Part shown: positions 7,365 through 40,528 of the stretch, piece after piece
Numbering within the stretch: position 1 is the first letter of the stretch
Layout: the number at the start of each line of letters is the position of its first letter
From: a virus
IMG/VR virus record: IMGVR_UViG_3300006100_000006
Span: 1 to 40,528 of that record
Length of the DNA: 40,528 nt
Strand: one strand, 5' to 3'
Program-made: the position numbers and the translations under genes
The notes under the pieces: generated by a model
Seen by the model: only the letters and a program-made list of their open reading frames with translations
Databases searched by the model: none
What the model was told of the DNA's origin: nothing

Positions 7365-8045
7365 ATGATTGCGTGCATGGAACACACAGATCCAAGGGCA
7401 AAACTCGTCGAGTCCACTTTGACTCGATATGGCCTGTCGTATCGGTGGCTAGCCGATCGGATGCATGTTACGCATCACACTATCATTAGCTGGTTGCAAG
7501 GTCGTTCGAGACCCAAGGACCAATTGGTGTGGCGGCAGATGCTCGAAATTTTGGGCGAGTACGAAAACGCCGTGCAATCAAGCCCGCACATCAAAGTGCG
7601 ACGTGTGGGAATAAGAGAAATCCCCCTTTATGGCGGTATAAGTGCAGGAATGCCACATTCTCAAGAATCAACAGTTGAGATCATGCAAGTCATGGACTGG
7701 GGATCAACAAATGAGCGTTGGGCTCGCATCATTGAAGGCGAATCCATGTCTCCTTTGTTGCAACCCGGCGATATCGTCGTGTTTGAAGATCGAAAATGGG
7801 ATCAAGGGCACGTTGTTCACGCATTTGACGGCGGCGAGGATTTGGTAAAGGTGGCGCGCGGCTTTGGTGAGGATGTGCGCCTCATTCCGGTCAATCCCGA
7901 ATATCCAGTGATTTCCGGCAAGACCATGAACATTAAAGGGGTTGCCGTCGAGCGAATCCGGAAGCTGGCGAACGACGTGACCGAGACGCAAACATTCCGC
8001 CACGGGATGCGCCACTCGGTCTCAACGGGACTCCCCAATAACTAA
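7365..8045 (+). CDS. LexA/CI-like prophage repressor with S24 self-cleavage domain
   Basis: A 226-residue protein that maintains lysogeny by binding early operators. The N-terminal HTH is at about residues 20-60 (LSYRWLADRMHVTHHTIISW). The C-terminal S24 peptidase domain has the expected Ala94-Gly95 cleavage site (GGISAGMP), nucleophile Ser127 (EGESMSPLLQPGD) and general base Lys162 (DLVKVARG). It should therefore be inactivated by RecA after DNA damage. A second in-frame ATG lies at 7377. No ribosome-binding site precedes either start, which fits leaderless translation as known for lambda cI. Operator repeats flank the gene on both sides. Confidence 0.88.
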   Translation: MIACMEHTDPRAKLVESTLTRYGLSYRWLADRMHVTHHTIISWLQGRSRPKDQLVWRQMLEILGEYENAVQSSPHIKVRRVGIREIPLYGGISAGMPHSQESTVEIMQVMDWGSTNERWARIIEGESMSPLLQPGDIVVFEDRKWDQGHVVHAFDGGEDLVKVARGFGEDVRLIPVNPEYPVISGKTMNIKGVAVERIRKLANDVTETQTFRHGMRHSVSTGLPNN

Positions 8046-10963: not shown

Positions 10964-12246
10964 TGCCGCTCCTCGACATCCAAACCGCAAACAACCAGAT
11001 CGGCAACATCCGGATCGGCGCGAAAAAGGTGTCCGCCAAGTCCGGCAAGGAATACCCGGCCGCCCTTGACACGTTCCGGTTCACCAGCCACGTAAAGAGC
11101 GCGATCGACGAGTGCGCCCGCGTGTTTGGCGGCGAGGTCGTCCCCTGGGACGGCCACCCCGGCCAGTGGGAGGTGATCACCGAGCGCAAGGAAATCCGCG
11201 CGCTTGCCCACGGTCGCCACTCGCTGAGCCAATGGTACGAGCAGTGGGTAAGCGGAGGTTGTACGCATCGATGCGACGGCGTCACGTGCACGCGTCGCGA
11301 TGCCGACGGCACCGAGTACCAGCAAGACTGTACGTGTGATCCTGAGCTTCGAGGCAAGGTCGAGGGCCGTCGGATCCTCGGCTGCAAACCGTGCTCCCGG
11401 CTGAGCGTGATGCTCACCGAGATCAACTCGACGGGCCGGTGGTTGTTTACGTCGGGCGGCAAAATCTTCGCGACCGAGATCGCCGGTTACTTCGAGACGT
11501 GCCAAGCGCTGAACCTTCCCGATTTCTTATTCGTGGTCCTGACGCTTGAAGAGGAAGAGATCAAGAAGCCCGGTCAGAAGCCGGAGAAATTTGTGGTGGT
11601 GCGGTGCAACCTCGACCCAAACCCGCCTAACTTCCTCGGCCGCATCGTCTCGCTGGTCCAAAGCTCGCAGTACGTGCTGCCGTCGTCCAATCCGGGCGCT
11701 CCCGCGATTGGCGCCGGTCAAGCTCCGGCCTTCGGTGCCGGAGTGCCAACCGACCAAAAAGCGGCCGCGGCCCAGTATCTCCGAGACATTGGGCTGACCG
11801 AGGACCAAAAGCGGCGACTCGCCGCCACGGTCAAAGCGGCCGGCAAGACGTTGACGCATACCGTGCTCGCCGCCAAAGCGGCCAACCTGCGAACGTTTGC
11901 CGAGATGAGCCGGTTTGCGCAACGTGAAGAAGCGAGCGGGGACGATGAGTCCCCGTTCCCGCCGTCCGAACCCGCGCCGACGCCGACCAGCAATCCCGCG
12001 CCCGTCGCTCCCTCCGCGATCATCGAAGCGGAATTTGTAGCCGACGCGGAAACGCCAAACGCTTACCTTAAAGGCATCGGCATCGAAAGCGAGTCGGATT
12101 TCTTCGACCTAATTGCCAAACTTGACGAGGTCGGCCTGCCGTTTGAGAAGACAATTCACGACGCGGAAACCGGCGGCATCAGCACCGTGGCCGGTTTGTA
12201 CGACTACATTGAACACCTCACCCACCGGCAAGAAGGTCTGTTTTGA
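10963..12246 (+). CDS. Gp3-like (recombination directionality factor-like) protein
   Basis: A 427-residue protein. The conserved part (about residues 70-180) has the Cys-rich Gp3-like signature: WYEQWVSGGCTHRCDG, further paired Cys (DCTCD, CKPC), then RLSVMLTEI, TGRWLFTSGG and ATEIAGYFE. Members such as the phiC31 and Bxb1 directionality factors assist serine integrases. This phage has a tyrosine integrase and the gene sits between two nucleases, so a replication or recombination role is more likely here. The C-terminal third is Pro/Ala-rich and then helical. Coupled starts on both sides (TAATG, TTGA). Confidence 0.75.
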   Translation: MPLLDIQTANNQIGNIRIGAKKVSAKSGKEYPAALDTFRFTSHVKSAIDECARVFGGEVVPWDGHPGQWEVITERKEIRALAHGRHSLSQWYEQWVSGGCTHRCDGVTCTRRDADGTEYQQDCTCDPELRGKVEGRRILGCKPCSRLSVMLTEINSTGRWLFTSGGKIFATEIAGYFETCQALNLPDFLFVVLTLEEEEIKKPGQKPEKFVVVRCNLDPNPPNFLGRIVSLVQSSQYVLPSSNPGAPAIGAGQAPAFGAGVPTDQKAAAAQYLRDIGLTEDQKRRLAATVKAAGKTLTHTVLAAKAANLRTFAEMSRFAQREEASGDDESPFPPSEPAPTPTSNPAPVAPSAIIEAEFVADAETPNAYLKGIGIESESDFFDLIAKLDEVGLPFEKTIHDAETGGISTVAGLYDYIEHLTHRQEGLF

Positions 12247-13379: not shown

Positions 13380-14807
13380 GTGGTTACACGTCCCTTTACC
13401 GGAATTTCGGTCTGCAGCGGTTACGGGGGAATCGACATGGGACTCAACCTTGTGTTCGGCCCAACTTTTCGCACGATCCTGTACTGCGAGAGGGAAGCAT
13501 TCCTCGCCGCTAATCTGGTCCAGAAGATGGAAGACGGCCTCTTGGATGAAGCTCCTATCTGGAGCGATCTTGCCTCAATCACAGATGCAAGCGTCCGCAA
13601 TTACGTTTGGGCGGCAACTGGGGGGGGCGTCGGAATTCTCTTCGGCGGAATCCCTTGTCAACCTCATTCCGTGGCCGGAAAGCAGCTGGGTGCGGCAGAT
13701 GATCGCGACCTTTTGCCAGATTTTCTCGTCGCCGTCGATGCGTACGATCCCCAATCGATCTTCGTCGAAAACGTCCCAGGGGCGCTTAACACTGGCTTTC
13801 TCGGCCGAATCCGATACGAATTGGAAGGAAGAGGCTACGCAGTTAAAGCAGGACTATTTAGCGCGGAGGAAGTCGGCGCGTCGCATTTACGAAAGCGGCT
13901 TTATGTCTTGGCCATCCGCCAAAGTCTCGCGCGGCGGTTACTGCTACAGTCGCGGCGACCACGACGACACGATCTTAACTCTGGAAGGAGCAGCCGCCAT
14001 GTGGGCGACCCCGCAAACGCCGAACGGCGGTCGGACGTTGACGCCGCAACAACTGGCCAACCATGGTTTGACGGAAACCGGGAAGCGACAAGTCGGGCTG
14101 GAGAATTTGGCGACCGCGTGGGCGACGCCGACTGTTTGGGAATCCAGACAAGAGGAGACAAGTCCGGCGGACCTGCATCGCAAAACCCCGGGCCTCAGGG
14201 CGGAAGCCCAATTGTGGGCGACGCCAAAGACGTCGGACACAAACGGGATCCGGAAGGACGACGAGAAACGTGGTGTGGGGCTGAACACGGAAACGGCCAA
14301 CTGGGCGACCCCCAGAGCAACGGACGGGGAAAAGGGCGGACCGAACCAAACCTTTGGGACGGGCGGCACGCCCCTGCCAGCGATGACGGCCAGTTGGCCG
14401 ACGCCGACGACGATGGACGCAGGACGCGTGACGAAATTTGCGCAGGGTGGGACGCCGTTGCCGATGGCGGCAAACCATTGCCTCTCTTCCCTCCGGGCCC
14501 AGGATTGGGTGGTTCTGGCGTGGTCGCTGACATCCGAAAACTTTACCGACGCGACCCTCAGCGAGCTTTCCGACGTTTTAGAGCGGAATTTGCCAACACG
14601 CTCAGATGGCTCGAAATCCTTGAAATCGCCCCCGACCTTGCGCCGGCGGTTGAACCCGAAATTCGTGGCGTGGCTGATGGGCATTCCCATCGACTGGATG
14701 AACTTCGGGCACTTGGAAACGGAGTCCTGCCCATCAACGTCGCGCTCGCATTCGTTAGCCTTCTCGCACAGTTCATGGAAGGCGGCGATGCGGATTCGGC
14801 TGCATGA
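13380..14807 (+). CDS. DNA cytosine-C5 methyltransferase
   Basis: A 475-residue protein that adds a methyl group to cytosine C5. Motif I is SVCSGYGGIDMGLN; motif IV is FGGIPCQPHSVAGKQ with catalytic Cys93; motif VI is FVENVP; motif VIII is LRKRLYVLA; motif X is LGNGVLPINVALAF. Between VIII and X lies a long low-complexity region (about residues 180-400) with repeated GD/AD words (VGDPAN, VGDADC, VGDAKD, LADADD), in the place of the target-recognition domain. Start is GTG at 13380, after a GGGGGAGGGG tract; later ATGs would lose motif I. A second long frame overlaps the 3' two thirds (13903-14880). Confidence 0.85.
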   Translation: MVTRPFTGISVCSGYGGIDMGLNLVFGPTFRTILYCEREAFLAANLVQKMEDGLLDEAPIWSDLASITDASVRNYVWAATGGGVGILFGGIPCQPHSVAGKQLGAADDRDLLPDFLVAVDAYDPQSIFVENVPGALNTGFLGRIRYELEGRGYAVKAGLFSAEEVGASHLRKRLYVLAIRQSLARRLLLQSRRPRRHDLNSGRSSRHVGDPANAERRSDVDAATTGQPWFDGNREATSRAGEFGDRVGDADCLGIQTRGDKSGGPASQNPGPQGGSPIVGDAKDVGHKRDPEGRRETWCGAEHGNGQLGDPQSNGRGKGRTEPNLWDGRHAPASDDGQLADADDDGRRTRDEICAGWDAVADGGKPLPLFPPGPGLGGSGVVADIRKLYRRDPQRAFRRFRAEFANTLRWLEILEIAPDLAPAVEPEIRGVADGHSHRLDELRALGNGVLPINVALAFVSLLAQFMEGGDADSAA

Positions 14808-16231: not shown

Positions 16232-16574
16232 CATCATCCAAATTGACCCGACTCCCGTTCCGTTGGCGCAATACGCCCGCGCGATGGGGGTGGCCGAGGA
16301 AACCCTTCTTGCGTGGCACGCGACAGGGGAATTTCCGGTCCTTCAGCGGATTGGACGCCGGTGGTTTGTCATGCCCGCGCTCGTGATAGGATTATCCGCA
16401 GATGGCAACTCTAAGGAAGGACGGCCGATATCAGGCGGTGTACAGGGACCCGACAACGGGCCAGCGCAAGACGGTGTACGGAATGACCAACCGCGAAGCC
16501 GAGGACGCCAAACGGGTGGCACTGCAAGCGGCAAACGCAACAACCGAGGGGAATGGACCAACCCCCTCGATTGA
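16224..16574 (+). CDS. Excisionase-like HTH protein, overlapping the integrase gene
   Basis: A protein of up to 116 residues. Residues 10-55 (PVPLAQYARAMGVAEETLLAW, then GEFPVLQRIGRRWFV) match the MerR/AlpA-type winged HTH found in phage excisionases. Its place just before the integrase gene supports a role in excision or integrase control. The ATG overlaps the previous stop by 8 bases. The frame does not stop until 16574, 173 bases inside the integrase gene, giving a Gly/Arg-rich tail that looks unstructured. The tail may be a consequence of a lost stop codon rather than selected sequence. Confidence 0.65.
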   Translation: MPNIIQIDPTPVPLAQYARAMGVAEETLLAWHATGEFPVLQRIGRRWFVMPALVIGLSADGNSKEGRPISGGVQGPDNGPAQDGVRNDQPRSRGRQTGGTASGKRNNRGEWTNPLD

Positions 16575-17481
16575 GCTGACATTGCACGACCTCGCGGGGC
16601 TGTTATGGTTTCCCGAAGTCCTTGCCAGCGCCCGCCCCAACACGATCAGAAAATACCGGGTGGCCTATGATCACCACATCCGGCCACGTTGGGGCAGCCG
16701 GACAATCGACACGATCCGCCCCGCCGAGGTGCAACGCTGGATTAACGATATGATGGCGACCGGTATCCCACCGGCGAGCATTTCGTTCTATCGCGGATTG
16801 CTAAGCGGCATCCTGAAGCGATGCGCGCGGGAAGGCATCGTGGCGACAAACGCGGCCAGTTTCGCCCGAATGCCCAAGCGCCCGAAAAGGGTCCGGTACG
16901 CGGACATCGACACCATTAAACGGCTGCTTGCCTCTGTCGAGGGTACGCCGCTCGCCGCCCCCGTATTTCTCGCCGCCGTGCTGGGGATGCGCCGAGGTGA
17001 AGTGTGTGGACTCCGATGGACCAACATCGACCGCGACCAACGGCGAATTAGAGTCAGCGAACAAAGGATGATGCAGCGGCAGCCGGTCAAAGGCAAACAG
17101 GTTCGCACCGGCGAACTGAAAACCGCCGCATCAGTCCGTTCGTTCCGCCTGCCGCCGCTCCTATTTGACGCTTTGGAGCGCGTCGGGAACCTTGACAGCG
17201 ATTATGTGTGCACGGGTCCGACCGGCAAACCCTGGAATCCCGAAAAGTTGACCGAATATTGGGCGCATCGCCGCGACGAGTTGGGCTTTGCCGACTGGCA
17301 TTACCATGATCTGCGCCACGCCGCCGCTTCAACGCTCGCCGCCCTTGGCGTGGATCTTCTGACTATTGCGTCGATTCTTGGCCACCAAAAAGTGGACATG
17401 ACCCAGGTCTACGCCCACGCTCAGGAACGGACCGCGAGTATAGGGTTTGATGCGCTCGCGAAAGCAATTTTTGGCTCATAG
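16402..17481 (+). CDS. int: Tyrosine recombinase (phage integrase)
   Basis: A 359-residue site-specific recombinase that inserts the phage into the host chromosome. The N-terminal arm-binding segment reads MATLRKDGRYQAVYRDPTTG. The SAM-like core-binding domain is at about residues 60-155. The catalytic domain carries Arg197 (LGMRRGEVCGLRW), Lys240 (ELKTAASVR), His302-x-x-Arg305 (HDLRHAAAS), His328 (LGHQK) and the nucleophile Tyr337 (TQVYAHAQ). All catalytic residues are intact. Its stop codon adjoins the attP arm repeats. The start at 16402 gives the standard N-terminus of the family, although the upstream gene runs 173 bases into it. Confidence 0.93.
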   Translation: MATLRKDGRYQAVYRDPTTGQRKTVYGMTNREAEDAKRVALQAANATTEGNGPTPSIELTLHDLAGLLWFPEVLASARPNTIRKYRVAYDHHIRPRWGSRTIDTIRPAEVQRWINDMMATGIPPASISFYRGLLSGILKRCAREGIVATNAASFARMPKRPKRVRYADIDTIKRLLASVEGTPLAAPVFLAAVLGMRRGEVCGLRWTNIDRDQRRIRVSEQRMMQRQPVKGKQVRTGELKTAASVRSFRLPPLLFDALERVGNLDSDYVCTGPTGKPWNPEKLTEYWAHRRDELGFADWHYHDLRHAAASTLAALGVDLLTIASILGHQKVDMTQVYAHAQERTASIGFDALAKAIFGS

Positions 17482-17643
17482 TATGTCAATGACATACCGA
17501 CAGAGAGGAATTTGAACCTATTGGCGGAGAGGGAGGGATTCTCCATCCGTGGGTTCAAAACGGTCGATTAGGCTCAAAGTTCGGCGGTTTAGGCGGGTTT
17601 GACACACCTTGAGCCGGGCAATTGACATACCGCGAGTGTGTCA
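17481..17643. other. attP: attP site with tRNA-Ser core and integrase arm repeats
   Basis: The 20 bases at 17522-17541 (TGGCGGAGAGGGAGGGATTC) equal the reverse complement of a typical bacterial tRNA-Ser 3' end, so this is the likely crossover core. Arm-type repeats flank it. On the left are GTATGTCA (17481-17488) and TGACATACC (17490-17498), facing each other. On the right are TGACACACC (17600-17608), TGACATACC (17623-17631) and the inverted GTGTGTCA (17636-17643). Integration would restore the tRNA 3' end. Confidence 0.85.
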
Positions 17644-19348: not shown

Positions 19349-20023
19349 TTAGCCCGCCTGCAGCCGCTTGGCCGCGATCTCGCAGTTGCGTTCATCGATG
19401 TCGATCCCCACCGACGCCAGGCCGAGCCTGGTGGCCGCGACTAGCGTCGTGCCGGACCCCATGTAAGGGTCAATGATTAACCCCGGCCGCTTGTAGAACC
19501 CGATGCACCATTCCATGAGCGCGATGGGCTTTTGGGTCGGATGCACCCGGGGAACGCCCTTTTCGCTCGCCTTCCGGAAACCATCCCATAAGTGGTGAAA
19601 AATCCGGTCCGCGCGGCCGCCCGTGCCTTTCGCCCAAGCGATCTCGACGCACGACATGGCGTTTACGTTGCCGCTTCGCTTATCCCAAACCAACCATCGG
19701 CCGCCCTCCGGCAGCCGGGACGCGTAGTGACCGGCGCCCCACAGCAGCACCTGGCGGTACCGCAACCATGGCCGGGGATCAAACGGTTTGTCGTCCCCGA
19801 TGATCCGCATCCCCGCAAATTTGGTCGTCCGAAAGCACCGATGGACGTAATTGATGCCGTAGGGCGGATCGGAAATTACAGTCCCTTCAAACTGGTCGAC
19901 GGCCTCCCGACAATCGCCATGGTAGATCCGGGTCGGTCCGATTTCGCAGTACAACCGGATGCCCGGGGAGGACGAATGTTTGCTCGGAGCCATGGCCCAT
20001 GGTTGCATCGGACCGCCGCCCAT
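19349..20023 (-). CDS. DNA methyltransferase (N6-adenine or N4-cytosine, DPPY type)
   Basis: A 224-residue DNA amino-methyltransferase with the catalytic motif DPPYGINY (motif IV, residues 52-59) before the AdoMet-binding motif DPYMGSGTT (185-193). This is the order of the beta class. HPTQKP (161-166) is also characteristic. Target and base cannot be read from sequence. Possible starts are ATGs at 20023, 20008 and 19993; GGGCGG before the second would allow 20008. It lies after the late-operon terminator, so it needs its own promoter. It may protect phage DNA against host restriction. Confidence 0.85.
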   Translation of the reverse strand: MGGGPMQPWAMAPSKHSSSPGIRLYCEIGPTRIYHGDCREAVDQFEGTVISDPPYGINYVHRCFRTTKFAGMRIIGDDKPFDPRPWLRYRQVLLWGAGHYASRLPEGGRWLVWDKRSGNVNAMSCVEIAWAKGTGGRADRIFHHLWDGFRKASEKGVPRVHPTQKPIALMEWCIGFYKRPGLIIDPYMGSGTTLVAATRLGLASVGIDIDERNCEIAAKRLQAG

Positions 20024-27276: not shown

Positions 27277-29933
27277 TAGAAAACAATTTCCTGAGCTTCG
27301 TACATGGCGAATTGCTGCGAGTCTTTCTCCGCACACGGATTTTCGGACCGAATGAGGAACGGCGTGCCGTCGATCGTCACCGGATCGTAATAGAGAAACC
27401 CGCGCTTTCGGTTTGAGTCCAATTCGTGCGTAATGAAGGCCTGCGGTGACTTCCAACTCGCCATTGTGAAGCCATGACACGTGAGGTCGTACTCGCGTCT
27501 TGCCGCCCAAGCCAACGCGTTGCCCGCTTCGCCTTCGCTGCCAAACTGCCCGGCGAGAACCGGGTTCATGTAATAAAGCGGGATGAAGCGCCCCAAATAA
27601 TCCGGCGACGTCGGGTCAGCCGTCGGGACGCCGGGGTAAAAGTTGTAGCTTTTGACGTTCACCAGATCCACTGTCGAAAGGGACGCCGGGCCCTGAGGGT
27701 TGACGATGCCCATACATGAGGCATGGACAAAGTTGGCCTCCGGAGCGCGGGGATAACTGCGCAAGGTGCTTTGCCCGTGCTCGTTGAAAATCGGAATCAC
27801 CGGAGCGTCCGACGTGTACGTATGCCCATCGCCGAGCGTCGAAGCCAAAGGGTAGGAAGGCAACGCCGACGGTACGCGCAAACTGCTATCGGTTTGCTGC
27901 GGCCCGGTGGTGACAAACGCCGCCCGGTATGTGTACGGAGCCGTCGGAGGGACAACGAGCCGCCATTTCCCGTACGTGCCGATGTTGTTATCAAACGTCA
28001 GAAACATCCCTAGGTAGGTGCTGATGACGTATTGCAAGTAATCGGCCATGTTTGTCAACGGGTTAAGAGTTGACTTGTCATCCGGGCCTTTGCCAAACAA
28101 CCGAACCGCCGAGTAGGGTAACTCAATCATGTCGTCCCCGAAACCGCAACAGTTCAACACGCCCCGCACGACGTCCGTGACCAAATAGGGGCCATCGGGA
28201 CCATAAAACGTTTGCTGCAATCCGGCGAACGTTTGCTCTTGAAGTCGCTGCCACATCCCCGACGCGCGAACGCTTAGCCGATAAGCAAGCGGACCGGGAT
28301 AAACACGCCCCAAACCGCCGGGATAACGCTCCGACTCAACGCGGTTGACATAGCCCCGAAACAAGACGACTCGCTTTGAAGCGTCGGACGCGTCATATTC
28401 GGTTTCGATGCGGATGGGCATTTGCGACCGGACGCGAAGGGTCGGTAACACGTTGGCAAAGTCCACCGCATCCACCATCGCCATGCTGTGCGACGGGTCT
28501 CGATCCTGTCCGGTGATGCTGTATCCGAGCGCCCCTTTAACCGGCAAATGCAAGCCCGATCCGGTATCAAGTAGTTCGAACGGCGTCGTTGTCGTGATAT
28601 CAAGCAACGCGTCACGGCTGATGCGCCATTGCGTCCAAATGGGCGTTTTGCTGCCGTCGGTCGAAGATGTGAACGAGCCTTTGACGTAATAGGACATCGG
28701 CGGTCCCGACGTGCCCCACGCGGGCGGGTTGTATTGCTTAAAGTTGTCCGCCGAGACCGCCGGCGATAAAACCGCACCCGTTTCCGCGTTGTAAAGATCG
28801 CAGGTGAACGTACTATCGCCGGGTGTTTCGGAGATCCAGTAAAGGGTGAACGGGTTCGCGGGATCAAACAGTCCCGACGGGGTGAACACGTCGTCCTTGA
28901 GCGTGCCCGAGGCGTAGTAATGCGGGGCGCCGATCGACACAATGCACGATCGGATATCCCGGCGGATGTCCACGCGAAGTGGGCAATCAACCGACGCCAC
29001 GCCTTCCGATGACACCGACGGGACCGCGTAACTGTAGGTCTGGGTCTCGATGTCGTGACCCAAAATCGAATTGATCGCGTAGTTGGTCAGCGTTTGAATT
29101 AGGCCAGGAGCTGCGGCCGCACCGCATTGAATTAAGATGCTTCCCACCGGTCCACTGCCGCGAGTGGTGTACGGGCTGCACATGATGCGGATGTTGTGCT
29201 CAAAGCCGAACACGTGCCCGGCGGCCGCATAGCGAAAACTGGATCGGTTGACGAACAACCCAGTGTTGGCATCTTTCTCCAAGAGAAACGCCCGTCCGTC
29301 GCCGCAGAAGTGAACCGCGTATTGGCCCGTGCCTGTTGAATCCTTTGTTTCGCCCGCCGGGCCGGGGAAATAGAACGTGGTGATGCCGTCGGTCGAGTGA
29401 AACGGGGCGGCCAGCGGATTGAAGCTGAACGCAAACGCTCCAAGCGCCTGATACGTGGCGTTGGTGTGGATCACCCGATCCATCGGGTAATTGGCCGTCG
29501 GCAACACCGGCGACGGAAACGCCGTTTGGTCTGCCGTAAGAATCCCGGTGTCCCAATTGCCGCCCGAGACGAACTTTTTGAACCGTGGCGCGCCGGTGGA
29601 TTGAACGCCCGAATCAGGATTAACGTTCGGAGCTTCAGAGTTGGTGAGCGACCGGTAGGAATTGATCTCGGCGATACAATCGCCCACCGTAAGCGCCGAA
29701 GAGTCCAAGTAGGATGTTGCACCTTCCGTGCGTTCCATCATCACGCCCGCGGCGTCGGCATAATGGCGCAAAGTCCACCCGATGCCTTGCCGTTTTTCGA
29801 CGTTGCTTAGCTGGGCCGATGTGCTGCGGGCGAATTCGTTGTACTGCTTTTCGTAAGAGTACGCGGGCTGAACGAGGGCATATTCCGCATCGTCAAAAAC
29901 GACGTGGGTCTTGCGGTTTGGCGTGACATCCAT
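27276..29933 (-). CDS. Large tail protein, baseplate/hub candidate
   Basis: An 885-residue protein starting at the ATG overlapping the tape-measure stop (TAATG); a longer open frame adds only shadow sequence. It begins MDVTPNRKTHVVFDDAEYAL. Its middle is beta-rich (GDSTFTCDLYNAETGAVLSP), and the later part contains RIETEYDASDASKRVVLFRG and a helical LTNMADYLQYVISTYLGMFL. In siphoviruses this place after the tape measure holds distal-tail and hub proteins, so a hub role is likely. I do not see the standard Dit or Tal motifs. Confidence 0.6.
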   Translation of the reverse strand: MDVTPNRKTHVVFDDAEYALVQPAYSYEKQYNEFARSTSAQLSNVEKRQGIGWTLRHYADAAGVMMERTEGATSYLDSSALTVGDCIAEINSYRSLTNSEAPNVNPDSGVQSTGAPRFKKFVSGGNWDTGILTADQTAFPSPVLPTANYPMDRVIHTNATYQALGAFAFSFNPLAAPFHSTDGITTFYFPGPAGETKDSTGTGQYAVHFCGDGRAFLLEKDANTGLFVNRSSFRYAAAGHVFGFEHNIRIMCSPYTTRGSGPVGSILIQCGAAAAPGLIQTLTNYAINSILGHDIETQTYSYAVPSVSSEGVASVDCPLRVDIRRDIRSCIVSIGAPHYYASGTLKDDVFTPSGLFDPANPFTLYWISETPGDSTFTCDLYNAETGAVLSPAVSADNFKQYNPPAWGTSGPPMSYYVKGSFTSSTDGSKTPIWTQWRISRDALLDITTTTPFELLDTGSGLHLPVKGALGYSITGQDRDPSHSMAMVDAVDFANVLPTLRVRSQMPIRIETEYDASDASKRVVLFRGYVNRVESERYPGGLGRVYPGPLAYRLSVRASGMWQRLQEQTFAGLQQTFYGPDGPYLVTDVVRGVLNCCGFGDDMIELPYSAVRLFGKGPDDKSTLNPLTNMADYLQYVISTYLGMFLTFDNNIGTYGKWRLVVPPTAPYTYRAAFVTTGPQQTDSSLRVPSALPSYPLASTLGDGHTYTSDAPVIPIFNEHGQSTLRSYPRAPEANFVHASCMGIVNPQGPASLSTVDLVNVKSYNFYPGVPTADPTSPDYLGRFIPLYYMNPVLAGQFGSEGEAGNALAWAARREYDLTCHGFTMASWKSPQAFITHELDSNRKRGFLYYDPVTIDGTPFLIRSENPCAEKDSQQFAMYEAQEIVF

Positions 29934-31003
29934 TAGCCTGCAAAATTCCCGTGGAACTGGGCCTCGCGTATCATTGCCGCCTGGTTTCCATACCAACCAA
30001 ACGCGGGGGCAAACGCGCCCCGAGCCCGACCGCCAAACCCGAACGCGCCCCGCATGTCCTTAGCCGCGTAAACCAATTGCTCGGCGGCGTCGCTAAGTTT
30101 GTCCGCCGCTTTCTGTTGTGCCGCCGCTTGTCGCTCGGCTTTTCCGGGAACGCCGGGGATGGTTGATACGGACGAATGGGGCAGCAAGTCGGTGAGTTTG
30201 CCGAGCCCGTCAATGGCATAAATCGCGAACTTTTGCGCCAATCGTTCGGCTTGCTGCTTGTAGCTGTCAAACTTGGCCAAAATCTGGTCCGCCTCTTTTT
30301 GTTCGTTAGCGTTTGGCCCCGAGAACGCTAAAGCATCCTGCAATTGGTCGGGGTTAAGGCTGCGCAACCGTCGGTATTGGTTAAGCCCCAACGCCTCGCC
30401 GAATCGCGCCGCCTGCTGCGGGTCTTTGATGTTGACGAATTGCTTGATCTGGTCGATAAGCTGGGCCGCGCCGCCAGGTCGTCGAGCTGCATCCTCGGTT
30501 ACTTGATCAAGCGAAACACCTGCCGCGCCAGACAACCCCGCGAGCTTTGACGCATCGGCCAGATTGGCCTTTCCCCTGAATTGAAAATCGCCAAACTCCG
30601 TGATCGATTGAACCGCGTTTCCGGCCACGACCGCGAGCCCGGCAATTGCCGCCGTGACCAACGCTACCGGGTTGTCAAGATTTTTGAATGCAAACGTGGC
30701 TAAGTTAATTGCGCCAACGAGGCTGCTCGCGTTGCTTCCTGCTCCGATGGCCGTGGTCAGCGACGGAATAGATCCGGGAACGGGAGCATTCGACGGCGGC
30801 GCGGGAAGCTGCTGCGTCACTGCACCGGCATCCGTCGGGACTTTGATGGTGACGTTTGACAACCCACGACCGGCGGACGCCACCTGCTGGAATTTGGTGG
30901 TCACATCGTCGAGTTGTTTGCCGATGCCGGTCAGCGATTTGGAGATCAAATCAAACGAGGCGGCGATCGCTTCGGCTCCGGTGAGTTTCAGTTCAAAAGT
31001 CAT
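29933..31003 (-). CDS. Tape measure protein (short)
   Basis: A 356-residue helical protein. The N-terminus (LISKSLTGIGKQLDDVTTKF) is coiled-coil-like. A hydrophobic segment of about 25 residues (PVALVTAAIAGLAVVAGNAV) lies near residue 120. More amphipathic helices follow, with an Ala/Lys/Gln-rich part (AERQAAAQQKAADKLSDAAE). Together with its place after the tail chaperones this supports a tape measure. At 356 residues it is short for the family and implies a short tail. It is separated from the chaperone gene by an opposite-strand gene. Confidence 0.7.
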   Translation of the reverse strand: MTFELKLTGAEAIAASFDLISKSLTGIGKQLDDVTTKFQQVASAGRGLSNVTIKVPTDAGAVTQQLPAPPSNAPVPGSIPSLTTAIGAGSNASSLVGAINLATFAFKNLDNPVALVTAAIAGLAVVAGNAVQSITEFGDFQFRGKANLADASKLAGLSGAAGVSLDQVTEDAARRPGGAAQLIDQIKQFVNIKDPQQAARFGEALGLNQYRRLRSLNPDQLQDALAFSGPNANEQKEADQILAKFDSYKQQAERLAQKFAIYAIDGLGKLTDLLPHSSVSTIPGVPGKAERQAAAQQKAADKLSDAAEQLVYAAKDMRGAFGFGGRARGAFAPAFGWYGNQAAMIREAQFHGNFAG

Positions 31004-31034
31004 TGTTTCTGCCTTTGTGGGCTAAAATGAATCC

Positions 31035-31418
31035 GTGACGCCCCAATCGGGTTTGTGCCCTAACTGCCAAAATGTCATCTGGCTAACGGGCCATGCGTGC
31101 CCGCATTGCGGAGCTATGCCGTTCCCGCCTTCGCGCGAAATGATTGCCGGGATGTGGGGATGTTTCTTTTTGGGCGTCTTTGTTGGGCCAAACGGGTCTG
31201 CGCCCGTGATGACGTTTTGCCAAATCGCTTGGCTGGTGTCGATCACCCTTTCGATCTATCTTGCTTTGAGGCAAAATCCGACCGACAAACGCCATGGCAA
31301 AATTTGCCTTATCCTGAATTTGGTGATCGTGGCGGCAGTGATTTTGCTACTGCCAAGCCATCCGAAAGCGCCGCCGCCTGCGCCGGTACCGGATGATCCT
31401 ATTCTCCAATCTCGATGA
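31035..31418 (+). CDS. Zinc-ribbon membrane protein, inserted on the opposite strand in the tail module (moron candidate)
   Basis: A 127-residue protein on the plus strand amid more than 20 kb of minus-strand late genes. The N-terminus has a zinc ribbon, CPNC then CPHC 12 residues on. Three membrane segments follow: MIAGMWGCFFLGVFVG, FCQIAWLVSITLSIYLAL and ICLILNLVIVAAVILLLPS. The tail is Pro-rich. The start is a GTG; TAAAAT lies 6 bases upstream as a possible -10 box, suggesting a leaderless message. The 3' end overlaps the frameshifted chaperone gene by 20 bases in antisense. Own promoter, own direction and membrane location are the marks of a lysogenic-conversion or exclusion gene; the function is unknown. 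Confidence 0.7.
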   Translation: MTPQSGLCPNCQNVIWLTGHACPHCGAMPFPPSREMIAGMWGCFFLGVFVGPNGSAPVMTFCQIAWLVSITLSIYLALRQNPTDKRHGKICLILNLVIVAAVILLLPSHPKAPPPAPVPDDPILQSR

Positions 31419-31949
31419 TGTCGTCAAGCCATCGGCTCGACGGCTCCGGTACGTCGAGACCTTTGCGCCCCGCTAAACGTTCGTTGATCGACCACAGCAA
31501 GCGGTCCTGCCGCACGTCGAGGTAAGGGTGGCGGCCGTGATTAGCCACCACCGTTTGCGCTAACCGGCTAGGGCCTTTTTTTTTGAAAGGAGATTCCGCG
31601 CGTCGTTGGTGATCTGGTCGAACTCGTCCTCGGCGGCGACGCTCATTGCCACGAAGTCCTCCCACTCCCAAGGCTGCCAGCCCGGCTGTCCGTTGTCGGT
31701 TTGCATCATGACAAGCGTAGCCGCAGATTGAGCAAGCGAACGACTGATAGGCACCGCGCGCCCGCCAATCGCCGGGAAACACGTGTCCGAATCGGGACCG
31801 TAGATTTCCAGCTTTGCGGCCGCCAATTCGGACGCATACATCTGCTCGGCAATCCCGATCGCGCGAAGAATGACGCGCCCCGAAACCCCAAAATCGCGAG
31901 CGATTTCGGGGCGCGGAGCCAATTCCATTGAAAAGAAGTTGGGTTTCAT
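31399..31949 (-). CDS. Tail assembly chaperone GT fusion, made by -1 frameshift
   Basis: The product of slipping at 31575-31581. The first 125 residues are the same as the short chaperone. A -1 shift then adds 58 residues from the overlapping frame (GPSRLAQTVVANHGRHPYLD to SRWLDDIIEIGE), ending at a TAG at 31401-31399 and giving about 183 residues. In siphoviruses the G and GT proteins bind the tape measure and recruit the major tail protein. The gene order, major tail protein then G/GT then tape measure, is the classic one, which supports the frameshift. Confidence 0.8.
31560..31949 (-). CDS. Tail assembly chaperone (G protein)
   Basis: A 129-residue protein, the unshifted product (MKPNFFSMELAPRPEIARDF to KKKALAG). 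It is helical and acidic (EDFVAMSVAAEDEFDQITND). The ATG overlaps the major tail protein stop (TAATG). Ribosomes that do not slip stop at the TAG four codons past the A-run. It is not homologous to G proteins by any motif I can name; the call rests on position and the slip site. Confidence 0.75.
   Translation of the reverse strand: MKPNFFSMELAPRPEIARDFGVSGRVILRAIGIAEQMYASELAAAKLEIYGPDSDTCFPAIGGRAVPISRSLAQSAATLVMMQTDNGQPGWQPWEWEDFVAMSVAAEDEFDQITNDARNLLSKKKALAG
31575..31581 (-). other. Programmed -1 frameshift site A_AAA_AAG
   Basis: Nine A residues followed by GG on the minus strand contain the heptamer A_AAA_AAG in phase with the upstream frame, the most efficient class of bacterial slippery sequence (as in dnaX). 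The -1 frame is open across it and ends at 31399. Confidence 0.85.
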
Positions 31950-39349: not shown

Positions 39350-40528
39350 AAAAAAGATTGAGCATTTGCCCTAAGCGGGGTTCCGCGTCGTTTGGTAACT
39401 CTAATTTCGTTGACCGCATCGGCGAACGCGTCGGCCTGGTCGTCGTAAAAGTGATCTTCATCCGCGCGGAACTGCCGCAATTCTTCGGAGAAAGGCCAGT
39501 TCCATTCCCCACGAACCAAAAACACGTTGCTTTCGTTGACCAGCTCGGCGGCATTTTCACCGCGCGTGGCTTTCTTGCCAGTCACGGGTTTTGAAACCAC
39601 GTCAAATCCGGCCAGCATTTCCTTGAGCGCCACCACCTGAAAAGAACCAGCTTGCGCCGGATCTTCGGGAAGGTGGGTCTTTGCCGTGCCTTTGGCCGCA
39701 TGGGCAAACGAAAACCGCTCTGCCCCACCCGCACGAAAATAACCGCGATCATCAATGTCGTCGGGGCCGTAAACCTTAAACTGCGCATCACGTCGAGCCG
39801 TGCGAAGGATTAACTCGCGAACGCCGCGCGGCTCGAACTGGTGGCGTACGACGTCGAGCACGTAGATTTGGCCATTCTCGGCTGCCCCAACAAGCACACC
39901 AACAGTCCAGTCGCCGCCGTTTTGTGTCGCGGCAAGATCCCACGCCCGAACGAGTCGGAGCTTGACGCCTGGCGGAATTGCGTCCACGTATTGCAAACGC
40001 GTGTGGTCGTAAAAGAACCCGTTCGCGCCACTAACCTCGTGCTGAGCTTCGCGTCGAAACGCCGACCATCCCCATTGGATAATTTGGCGTTGGCACGTTT
40101 CAAGCGACTGTCCCGCCCATGTCGGCGTGCCCCCGATTATGCGTTTGTAGGTGCGGCCATTGGGCAGCGTCGAGTCTTCGACTTGCAGATTTTCGACCGC
40201 CGGAATCGGCCCCACGATATCCGCGTCAAGCAAATAATCCGCGCGGCGATGAACAATCCGCGCCACGATCCCATCATCAATGATGAGGTTTTGCAGAAAC
40301 AGAATCACGCAGTCCGACGATCCCGCCGGAAGCAGTGATTGCGTGATGGCAACCTCTTTTTTACCGGTCGTCGCGGGCGTGTCTCGGCGAGAATCGATGT
40401 CGTCGAATACGATGATGTCGGGCCGAAACTCGTCGAGCTTGACACCACGCGCCGCGACGTCCAGCCCAATGCCCGCCAAGTTAAACCCGTTCGACGCGCG
40501 AAGCTGATCACGCCGCCAGCCTTTGGAA
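39346..40528 (-). CDS. terL: Terminase large subunit, C-terminal part (gene enters from the right edge)
   Basis: Continues the frame of 1-529 across the circle junction. It contains Walker B DIIVFDDID (about residues 187-195 of the joined protein) and the RNase H-like nuclease with first Asp in VRAWDLAATQNGGDWT (about residue 337) and final acidic cluster DDQADAFADAVNEI. The stop overlaps the portal ATG. The internal TTG at 40479 is an artefact start within the continuous frame. Confidence 0.9.
   Translation of the reverse strand, partial: SKGWRRDQLRASNGFNLAGIGLDVAARGVKLDEFRPDIIVFDDIDSRRDTPATTGKKEVAITQSLLPAGSSDCVILFLQNLIIDDGIVARIVHRRADYLLDADIVGPIPAVENLQVEDSTLPNGRTYKRIIGGTPTWAGQSLETCQRQIIQWGWSAFRREAQHEVSGANGFFYDHTRLQYVDAIPPGVKLRLVRAWDLAATQNGGDWTVGVLVGAAENGQIYVLDVVRHQFEPRGVRELILRTARRDAQFKVYGPDDIDDRGYFRAGGAERFSFAHAAKGTAKTHLPEDPAQAGSFQVVALKEMLAGFDVVSKPVTGKKATRGENAAELVNESNVFLVRGEWNWPFSEELRQFRADEDHFYDDQADAFADAVNEIRVTKRRGTPLRANAQSFL
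40449..40528. repeat. Terminal direct repeat, right copy
   Basis: An exact copy of bases 1-80, inside terL. It closes the circle; see the left copy. Confidence 0.95.

What the first reader, a model, noticed from the sequence alone, without database searches (positions are those of the whole stretch)
31035..31418. Opposite-strand zinc-ribbon membrane gene inside the tail operon
A well-formed plus-strand gene sits exactly between tail chaperone and tape measure, where siphoviruses normally have no gene. It has a CxxC-x12-CxxC ribbon, three membrane helices, a possible own -10 box and a likely leaderless GTG start, and its end is antisense to the GT frame. This is the mark of a moron expressed in the lysogen, perhaps for superinfection exclusion or envelope change. 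Its transcript could also interfere with late messages at the frameshift gene.
Basis: partly seen in the sequence, partly recalled or inferred. Interest (0 to 1): 0.75.

Follow-up and report, generated by a model that had tools for sequence, protein, structure and literature searches.

The report
Membrane-protein moron beside tape-measure gene
A temperate phage from an uncultured host carries, backwards inside its tail-gene block and right next to its tape-measure gene, a small extra gene with its own promoter that makes a membrane protein, and related phages repeatedly carry other, unrelated membrane-protein genes at the same place, as expected of genes that protect the host cell from further phages.

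Summary
The plus-strand gene at 31035-31418 is real by every test I could run, apart from expression. It fills a 395-bp insertion between the tail-chaperone (GT) frame and the tape-measure gene (TMP). In relatives with that site empty, GT and TMP overlap or abut. The protein has 127 aa: an N-terminal zinc ribbon (CxxC-x10-CxxC, not x12) and three predicted membrane helices.

It belongs to a pattern. Of 13 distinct phages with this tail type, 8 carry one inserted gene (or small cassette) beside TMP: GT|TMP in three, TMP|next gene in five. Each of the eight encodes a predicted membrane or lipoprotein, against 15 of 191 other genes (p about 1e-8). Six are opposite to the tail operon. Four of those have the same N-terminal ribbon. 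In the five closest carriers, a TANAAT -10 box lies 6 (once 7) nt before the start codon, the known signature of leaderless genes. No other ORF of at least 35 aa in those loci has this.

E. coli phage HK97 has its superinfection-exclusion moron gp15 between the same two genes. So this is an autonomous moron, most likely an HK97-gp15-like exclusion protein acting at DNA entry. The exclusion function is inferred. Antisense regulation of GT has no support.

The parts
31035..31418 (+). moron gene (P0001, 127 aa): N-terminal zinc ribbon, three predicted membrane helices, Pro-rich C-terminal tail
   Evidence: 100% identical copy in IMGVR_UViG_3300006071_001706
31023..31028 (+). -10 box TAAAAT exactly 6 nt before the GTG (leaderless-type promoter; no -35 seen)
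   Evidence: TANNNT about 12 bp before the start codon marks leaderless genes
31004..31398 (.). 395-bp insertion relative to relatives in which GT and TMP overlap or abut (-41 to +4 bp)
31056..31109 (+). zinc ribbon CPNC-x10-CPHC (residues 8-25)
   Evidence: sub-threshold Pfam matches DZR_2 2.6e-4 and zf-ChsH2 4.3e-4
31134..31349 (+). predicted membrane helices, residues 34-50, 55-78, 82-105
   Evidence: low confidence; hydropathy
31399..31418 (.). 20-bp overlap of the moron 3' end with the end of the GT frame (antisense)
31560..31949 (-). tail assembly chaperone G (129 aa)
31399..31584 (-). GT extension in the -1 frame; A9 slippery run at 31576-31584 (minus)
   Evidence: C-terminal homology to relatives, motif WSINERLAG
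29933..31003 (-). tape-measure-position gene (356 aa, one hydrophobic segment)
   Evidence: synteny with L029, L007, L011, L012, L032
27276..29996 (-). next tail gene (about 900 aa); the TMP|next junction is empty in the window but occupied in five relatives

Best explanation
The gene is an autonomous phage moron: a foreign gene with its own leaderless promoter, inserted backwards between the tail chaperone and the tape measure of a temperate siphovirus-like phage. Facing against the late operon, it would be transcribed from its own -10 box by host RNA polymerase while the late genes are silent, that is, in the lysogen. It makes a small inner-membrane protein. By the positive-inside rule the zinc ribbon would be in the cytoplasm and the Pro-rich tail outside. 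I think it most likely blocks DNA entry of superinfecting phages by disturbing the tape-measure channel at the inner membrane, as HK97 gp15 does. Its place beside TMP would keep it linked to the matching tape-measure allele. Shown: gene, insertion, promoter motif, family-wide pattern. Inferred: expression in lysogens, topology, exclusion, TMP as the target.
For: Insertion and empty site: the GT stop to TMP start distance is -41 to +4 bp in the relatives with an empty GT|TMP site, 395 bp in the window. Temperate phage: S24 repressor, tyrosine integrase. Recurrence: 8 of 13 distinct phages with this tail type have a gene or small cassette inserted beside TMP: GT|TMP in the window, L029 and L032; TMP|next in L011, L012, L098, L099 and L101. 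All eight encode membrane proteins or a lipoprotein, against 15 of 191 other genes, several of those being TMPs (Fisher p 9e-9). Promoter: in the window, L011, L012, L029 and L032, a TANAAT box 5-8 nt before a start codon of an ORF of at least 35 aa occurs exactly five times, and these are the five inserted genes. L032 and L011 inserts end in clear intrinsic terminators (read by eye). Precedent: HK97 gp15 lies between the -1 frameshift tail gene and H, with its own terminator; gp15 and Ltp block DNA injection, and changes in tail tube or tape-measure genes escape them (PMC10883804). SNIPE, a membrane nuclease, also contacts TMPs (PMC13190303).
Against: No homologue of P0001 was found outside one identical record, so selection on the frame cannot be measured. 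Codon bias is weak and an overlapping minus frame scores higher. No -35 box or terminator was found at the window gene. No match to known exclusion or defence families was found. The eight inserts are mostly unrelated in sequence, so a shared function is inferred from location and membrane nature only. The host is unknown.
Confidence: 0.5

Rival explanations
1. It is a lysogenic-conversion moron that changes the host envelope for another benefit (stress, surface, metabolism) and has nothing to do with superinfection; the tail operon is simply a tolerated landing site.
For: The inserts are diverse (zinc-ribbon/TM, BamE-domain, lipoprotein, multi-TM) and resemble ordinary bacterial envelope proteins. 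Morons in general have varied roles.
Against: Does not explain why inserts concentrate on the two junctions of TMP and are all membrane proteins, nor the match with HK97 gp15.
Confidence: 0.3
2. The plus-strand transcript is a regulator: antisense to the GT end and head-on against late transcription, it tunes tail-chaperone frameshifting or keeps late genes silent.
For: The 3' end overlaps GT by 20 bp and no terminator is seen, so the transcript may run into GT.
Against: Most relatives with G/GT lack any insert there; where inserts exist they may be on the same strand (L011, L032) or at the other side of TMP. RNA folding at the 3' end is unremarkable (z -1.1). A protein-coding frame with ribbon and helices is not needed for this.
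Confidence: 0.07
3. It is a neutral or decaying hitchhiker with no present function.
For: Narrow distribution and weak codon signal.
Against: Intact frame, intact ribbon and helices, precisely placed -10 box, and a recurrent pattern in relatives.
Confidence: 0.1
4. It is a holin-like lysis protein (small, three helices).
For: Size and helix number.
Against: It faces against the late operon, so it would not be made with late genes; a cytoplasmic zinc ribbon is not a usual holin feature (general knowledge).
Confidence: 0.03

Closest known systems
HK97 gp15 (moron, superinfection exclusion, E. coli phage HK97)
   Same: Same slot between the -1 frameshift tail chaperone and the tape measure; small inner-membrane protein in a temperate phage; moron
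   Different: gp15 is on the same strand as the tail genes, has one predicted helix (own knowledge), is half the size (62 aa), has its own terminator and no zinc ribbon; no sequence similarity detected by the searches made
TP-J34 Ltp lipoprotein and Tuc2009 Sie2009
   Same: Membrane-tethered exclusion proteins of temperate siphoviruses; Ltp acts on TMP. The relative L032 carries a lipoprotein gene in the window's slot
   Different: ltp lies in the lysogeny module, not beside TMP; Gram-positive hosts; different proteins
HK97 gp23 'reverse moron' and morons in general
   Same: Opposite-strand gene inserted in the tail operon
   Different: Other position (before J)
Bacterial zinc-ribbon membrane proteins (Zn_ribbon/DZR families)
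   Same: N-terminal CxxC-x10-CxxC followed by membrane helix or helices
   Different: Matches stay below the curated Pfam cut-offs; in a phage tail operon
Leaderless genes with a TANNNT box about 12 bp before the start codon
   Same: The first T of TAAAAT is 12 nt before the GTG
   Different: Host phylum unknown; transcription start not measured

Membership tests
phage moron | extra gene between two genes that are adjacent in related phages | tested here: met
   empty GT|TMP site in L007/L009, L011, L012, L018, L058, L068/L070, L098, L099, L101, G014
phage moron | own promoter | tested here: met
   TAAAAT 6 nt before the GTG; same arrangement in the other four close carriers and in no other ORF of at least 35 aa there; motif only, no transcript data
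phage moron | own terminator (usual, not present in every moron) | tested here: inconclusive
   none found in the window; present in L032 and L011
phage moron | expressed in the lysogen | not testable with these tools
   no RNA data; phage is temperate
HK97 gp15-type exclusion protein | position between frameshift chaperone and tape measure | tested here: met
HK97 gp15-type exclusion protein | membrane protein | tested here: met
   hydropathy and model
HK97 gp15-type exclusion protein | sequence homology to gp15/YebO | tested here: not met
   no gp15 or HK97 match in tblastn of phages at E 10 nor in Pfam/NCBIfam; so not filed as a member
HK97 gp15-type exclusion protein | blocks DNA entry; TMP-dependent | not testable with these tools
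   needs lysogen and infection assays
zinc ribbon | two CxxC knuckles with ribbon spacing, significant family match | tested here: inconclusive
   motif present; Pfam E 2.6e-4 to 4.3e-4 but below curated cut-offs
leaderless gene | -10 box with its first T about 12 nt before the start codon, no SD | tested here: met
   compared with PMC3160421 and PMC12340547

The most novel reading that the evidence does not exclude
The two junctions of the tape-measure gene in this phage group are a dedicated, exchangeable locus for self-exclusion proteins. Unrelated membrane proteins, mostly written backwards and, in the close group, driven by leaderless promoters, are swapped in and out, each matched to the neighbouring tape-measure allele (a tape-measure immunity locus).
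Probability: 0.3. Interest if true: 0.75.

Novelty: new variant of a known kind. Interest (0 to 1): 0.58.

Why it matters
HK97 gp15 is the precedent I could find for a membrane moron beside a tape measure. Finding, in a group of phages from uncultured hosts, that eight of 13 carry a membrane-protein gene on one or other side of TMP and never on both makes a general rule testable: exclusion genes sit next to the tail gene they act on. It also gives a way to find new entry-blocking proteins in phages by position alone, and a clean promoter signature to recognise genes probably expressed in lysogens within late operons.

Tried and rejected
Homologue searches for P0001 in viral contigs, phage and plasmid records, PDB, Pfam, PHROGs, NCBIfam and PADLOC: nothing beyond the identical record and sub-threshold ribbons. 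Fold search with the low-confidence model: nothing. Antisense-RNA role: no terminator, no unusual structure, not conserved. A motif scan for more members of the L012/L099 ribbon family found only those two. An alignment of the next tail gene was too divergent to search with. The first gene-calling pass preferred an antisense 74-aa frame (31022-31246 minus) over P0001; I kept P0001 because of the -10 placement, ribbon, helices and exact fit to the insertion.

Full report
WHAT THE WINDOW IS. The window is a whole virus record of 40,528 bases with an exact 80-bp terminal repeat, so it is probably a complete, circularly assembled phage genome. It has an S24-type repressor (7365-8045 plus), a tyrosine integrase (16402-17481 plus) and an RDF-like gene, so it is temperate. 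The late genes run on the minus strand: terminase, portal, capsid, connectors, tail tube, G/GT, tape measure, tail tip. The only near copy of the region is a 16.6-kb record with 100% identity.

THE OBSERVATION. The plus-strand ORF 31035-31418 encodes 127 residues. Helices are predicted at 34-50, 55-78 and 82-105 (single-sequence model, pLDDT 62.9), the last two also by strict hydropathy. The GT frame of the chaperone is entered by a -1 shift, with an A9 run at 31576-31584 on the minus strand as the likely slippery site. It ends at 31399, so the moron's last 20 bases are antisense to it. Codon usage gives little support by itself (0.033 per codon, like the repressor at 0.036). Among 6,876 ORFs of at least 100 aa in Markov-random sequence, none combined such a ribbon with at least two helices.

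EMPTY SITES. The capsid protein led to 79 loci in viral contigs, and a conserved motif at the end of GT (WSINERLAG) led to five new ones. In the relatives with an empty GT|TMP site the GT stop overlaps or abuts the TMP start: -8 (L007, L009, L018), -1 (L012), +3 (L011), -23 (L058), -32 (L068), -41 (L070). L098, L099, L101 and G014 also have it empty (at most +4 bp). In the window the distance is 395 bp, and the moron fills it. This is a clean insertion.

THE PATTERN. Thirteen distinct phages with this tail type have both TMP junctions in view (in L098 and L012 the locus ends soon after TMP). Five are empty at both (L007/L009, L018, L058, L068/L070, G014). Eight have a gene or small cassette inserted at one junction, never both. 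GT|TMP: window (reverse, ribbon plus three helices), L029/L030 (reverse, one helix; followed by forward fibre-like genes), L032 (forward lipoprotein MRVFLLAMLTIGLIGC). TMP|next gene: L012 (reverse, ribbon plus helix, with a second tiny ribbon ORF overlapping its stop), L099 (reverse, ribbon plus helix), L101 (reverse, ribbon plus helix), L098 (reverse, multi-helix, cut by the contig end), L011 (forward, helix plus BamE domain, E 2.7e-11). All four ribbons have the same x10 spacing. All eight are membrane proteins or lipoproteins, against 15 of 191 other genes, of which seven are TMPs (p 9e-9). A more distant phage, L051, also has a reverse 48-aa one-helix ORF between GT and a Pfam-recognised TMP.

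THE PROMOTER. In the five closest carriers (window, L011, L012, L029, L032), the start codon is preceded by TANAAT at 6 nt (7 in L011). Over all 10,028 possible start codons of these loci on both strands, TANAAT at exactly 6 nt occurs four times, and these four are four of the inserted genes. A TANNNT box about 12 bp before the start codon is the published mark of leaderless genes (PMC3160421; PMC12340547 shows that a -35 box is often absent). L099 and L101 lack this signature, so it is a feature of the close group. L032 and L011 genes also end in intrinsic terminators as read from the sequence; the window gene has none that the scan recognises.

HOW IT MOST LIKELY WORKS. Facing against the late operon, the gene can hardly be made with the late genes. 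Its own promoter makes expression in the lysogen the natural reading (inference). The loop between helices 2 and 3 (RQNPTDKRHGK) is positive, so the ribbon end is probably cytoplasmic and the Pro-rich tail outside (inference). HK97 gp15 lies in the same slot; [quoted passage not shown] TP-J34 Ltp, a lipoprotein, is escaped by TMP changes (PMC10883804; PMC3952083). The TMPs of this group often contain a hydrophobic segment. I therefore favour exclusion at DNA entry, with the tape measure as target. The moron reading itself I hold at about 0.85; exclusion at about 0.5.

COMPARISON. It works like HK97 gp15 by position and membrane nature, but it is not filed as a member: no homology to gp15 was found. 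It differs in orientation, in its ribbon, in its promoter type, and in being one of a set of unrelated membrane proteins exchanged at both flanks of TMP in one phage group.

LIMITS. The host is unknown, no RNA data exist here, and no diverged homologue of P0001 was found. The gene caller is home-made, and hydropathy is a rough helix predictor. The 13 phages come from metagenome contigs, and near-identical records were counted once.

Noticed in passing
L012 11258-11761 and just downstream (about 11170-11260), minus strand: Reverse ribbon-plus-helix gene whose stop overlaps the ATG (TAATG) of a mini ORF with a second CxxC-x10-CxxC (MWQCKRCRNILVPYYPVCQWCGE...), a possible two-gene cassette.
   Followed up: partly
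L029 15417-17567 (plus), between the reverse moron and TMP: Three forward genes, one with a collagen-like GPTGPQGPAGADG stretch, inserted in the same GT|TMP slot: a fibre-like cassette.
   Followed up: no
L051 17198-17344, minus strand: Reverse 48-aa one-helix ORF with a good SD between GT and a TMP_3-type tape measure in a more distant phage.
   Followed up: partly
window 17521-17541: TTGGCGGAGAGGGAGGGATTC just after the integrase stop looks like a tRNA-Ser 3' end read backwards: a likely attP core.
   Followed up: no
window 1-80 and 40449-40528: Exact 80-bp terminal repeat: the record is probably a complete genome, with the terminase gene split across the ends.
   Followed up: partly
window 13380-14807 (plus) and 19349-20023 (minus): By eye, a C5-cytosine DNA methyltransferase motif (CSGYGGIDMGL) and a second methyltransferase-like ORF (GPTRIYHGDC).
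   Followed up: no
window 5013-5561, minus: Pentapeptide-repeat protein (Pfam E 4e-16) next to a 428-aa gene without a Pfam match.
   Followed up: no
L016 2910-3827 and L073 11451-12179, minus: Reverse-strand genes that look like GIY-YIG homing endonucleases just after the capsid gene; L084 12414-13430 has another reverse gene with an HTH-like start.
   Followed up: no
L010 10812-11066, minus: Reverse 84-aa ORF without a membrane helix inserted between two connector genes, not at TMP.
   Followed up: no
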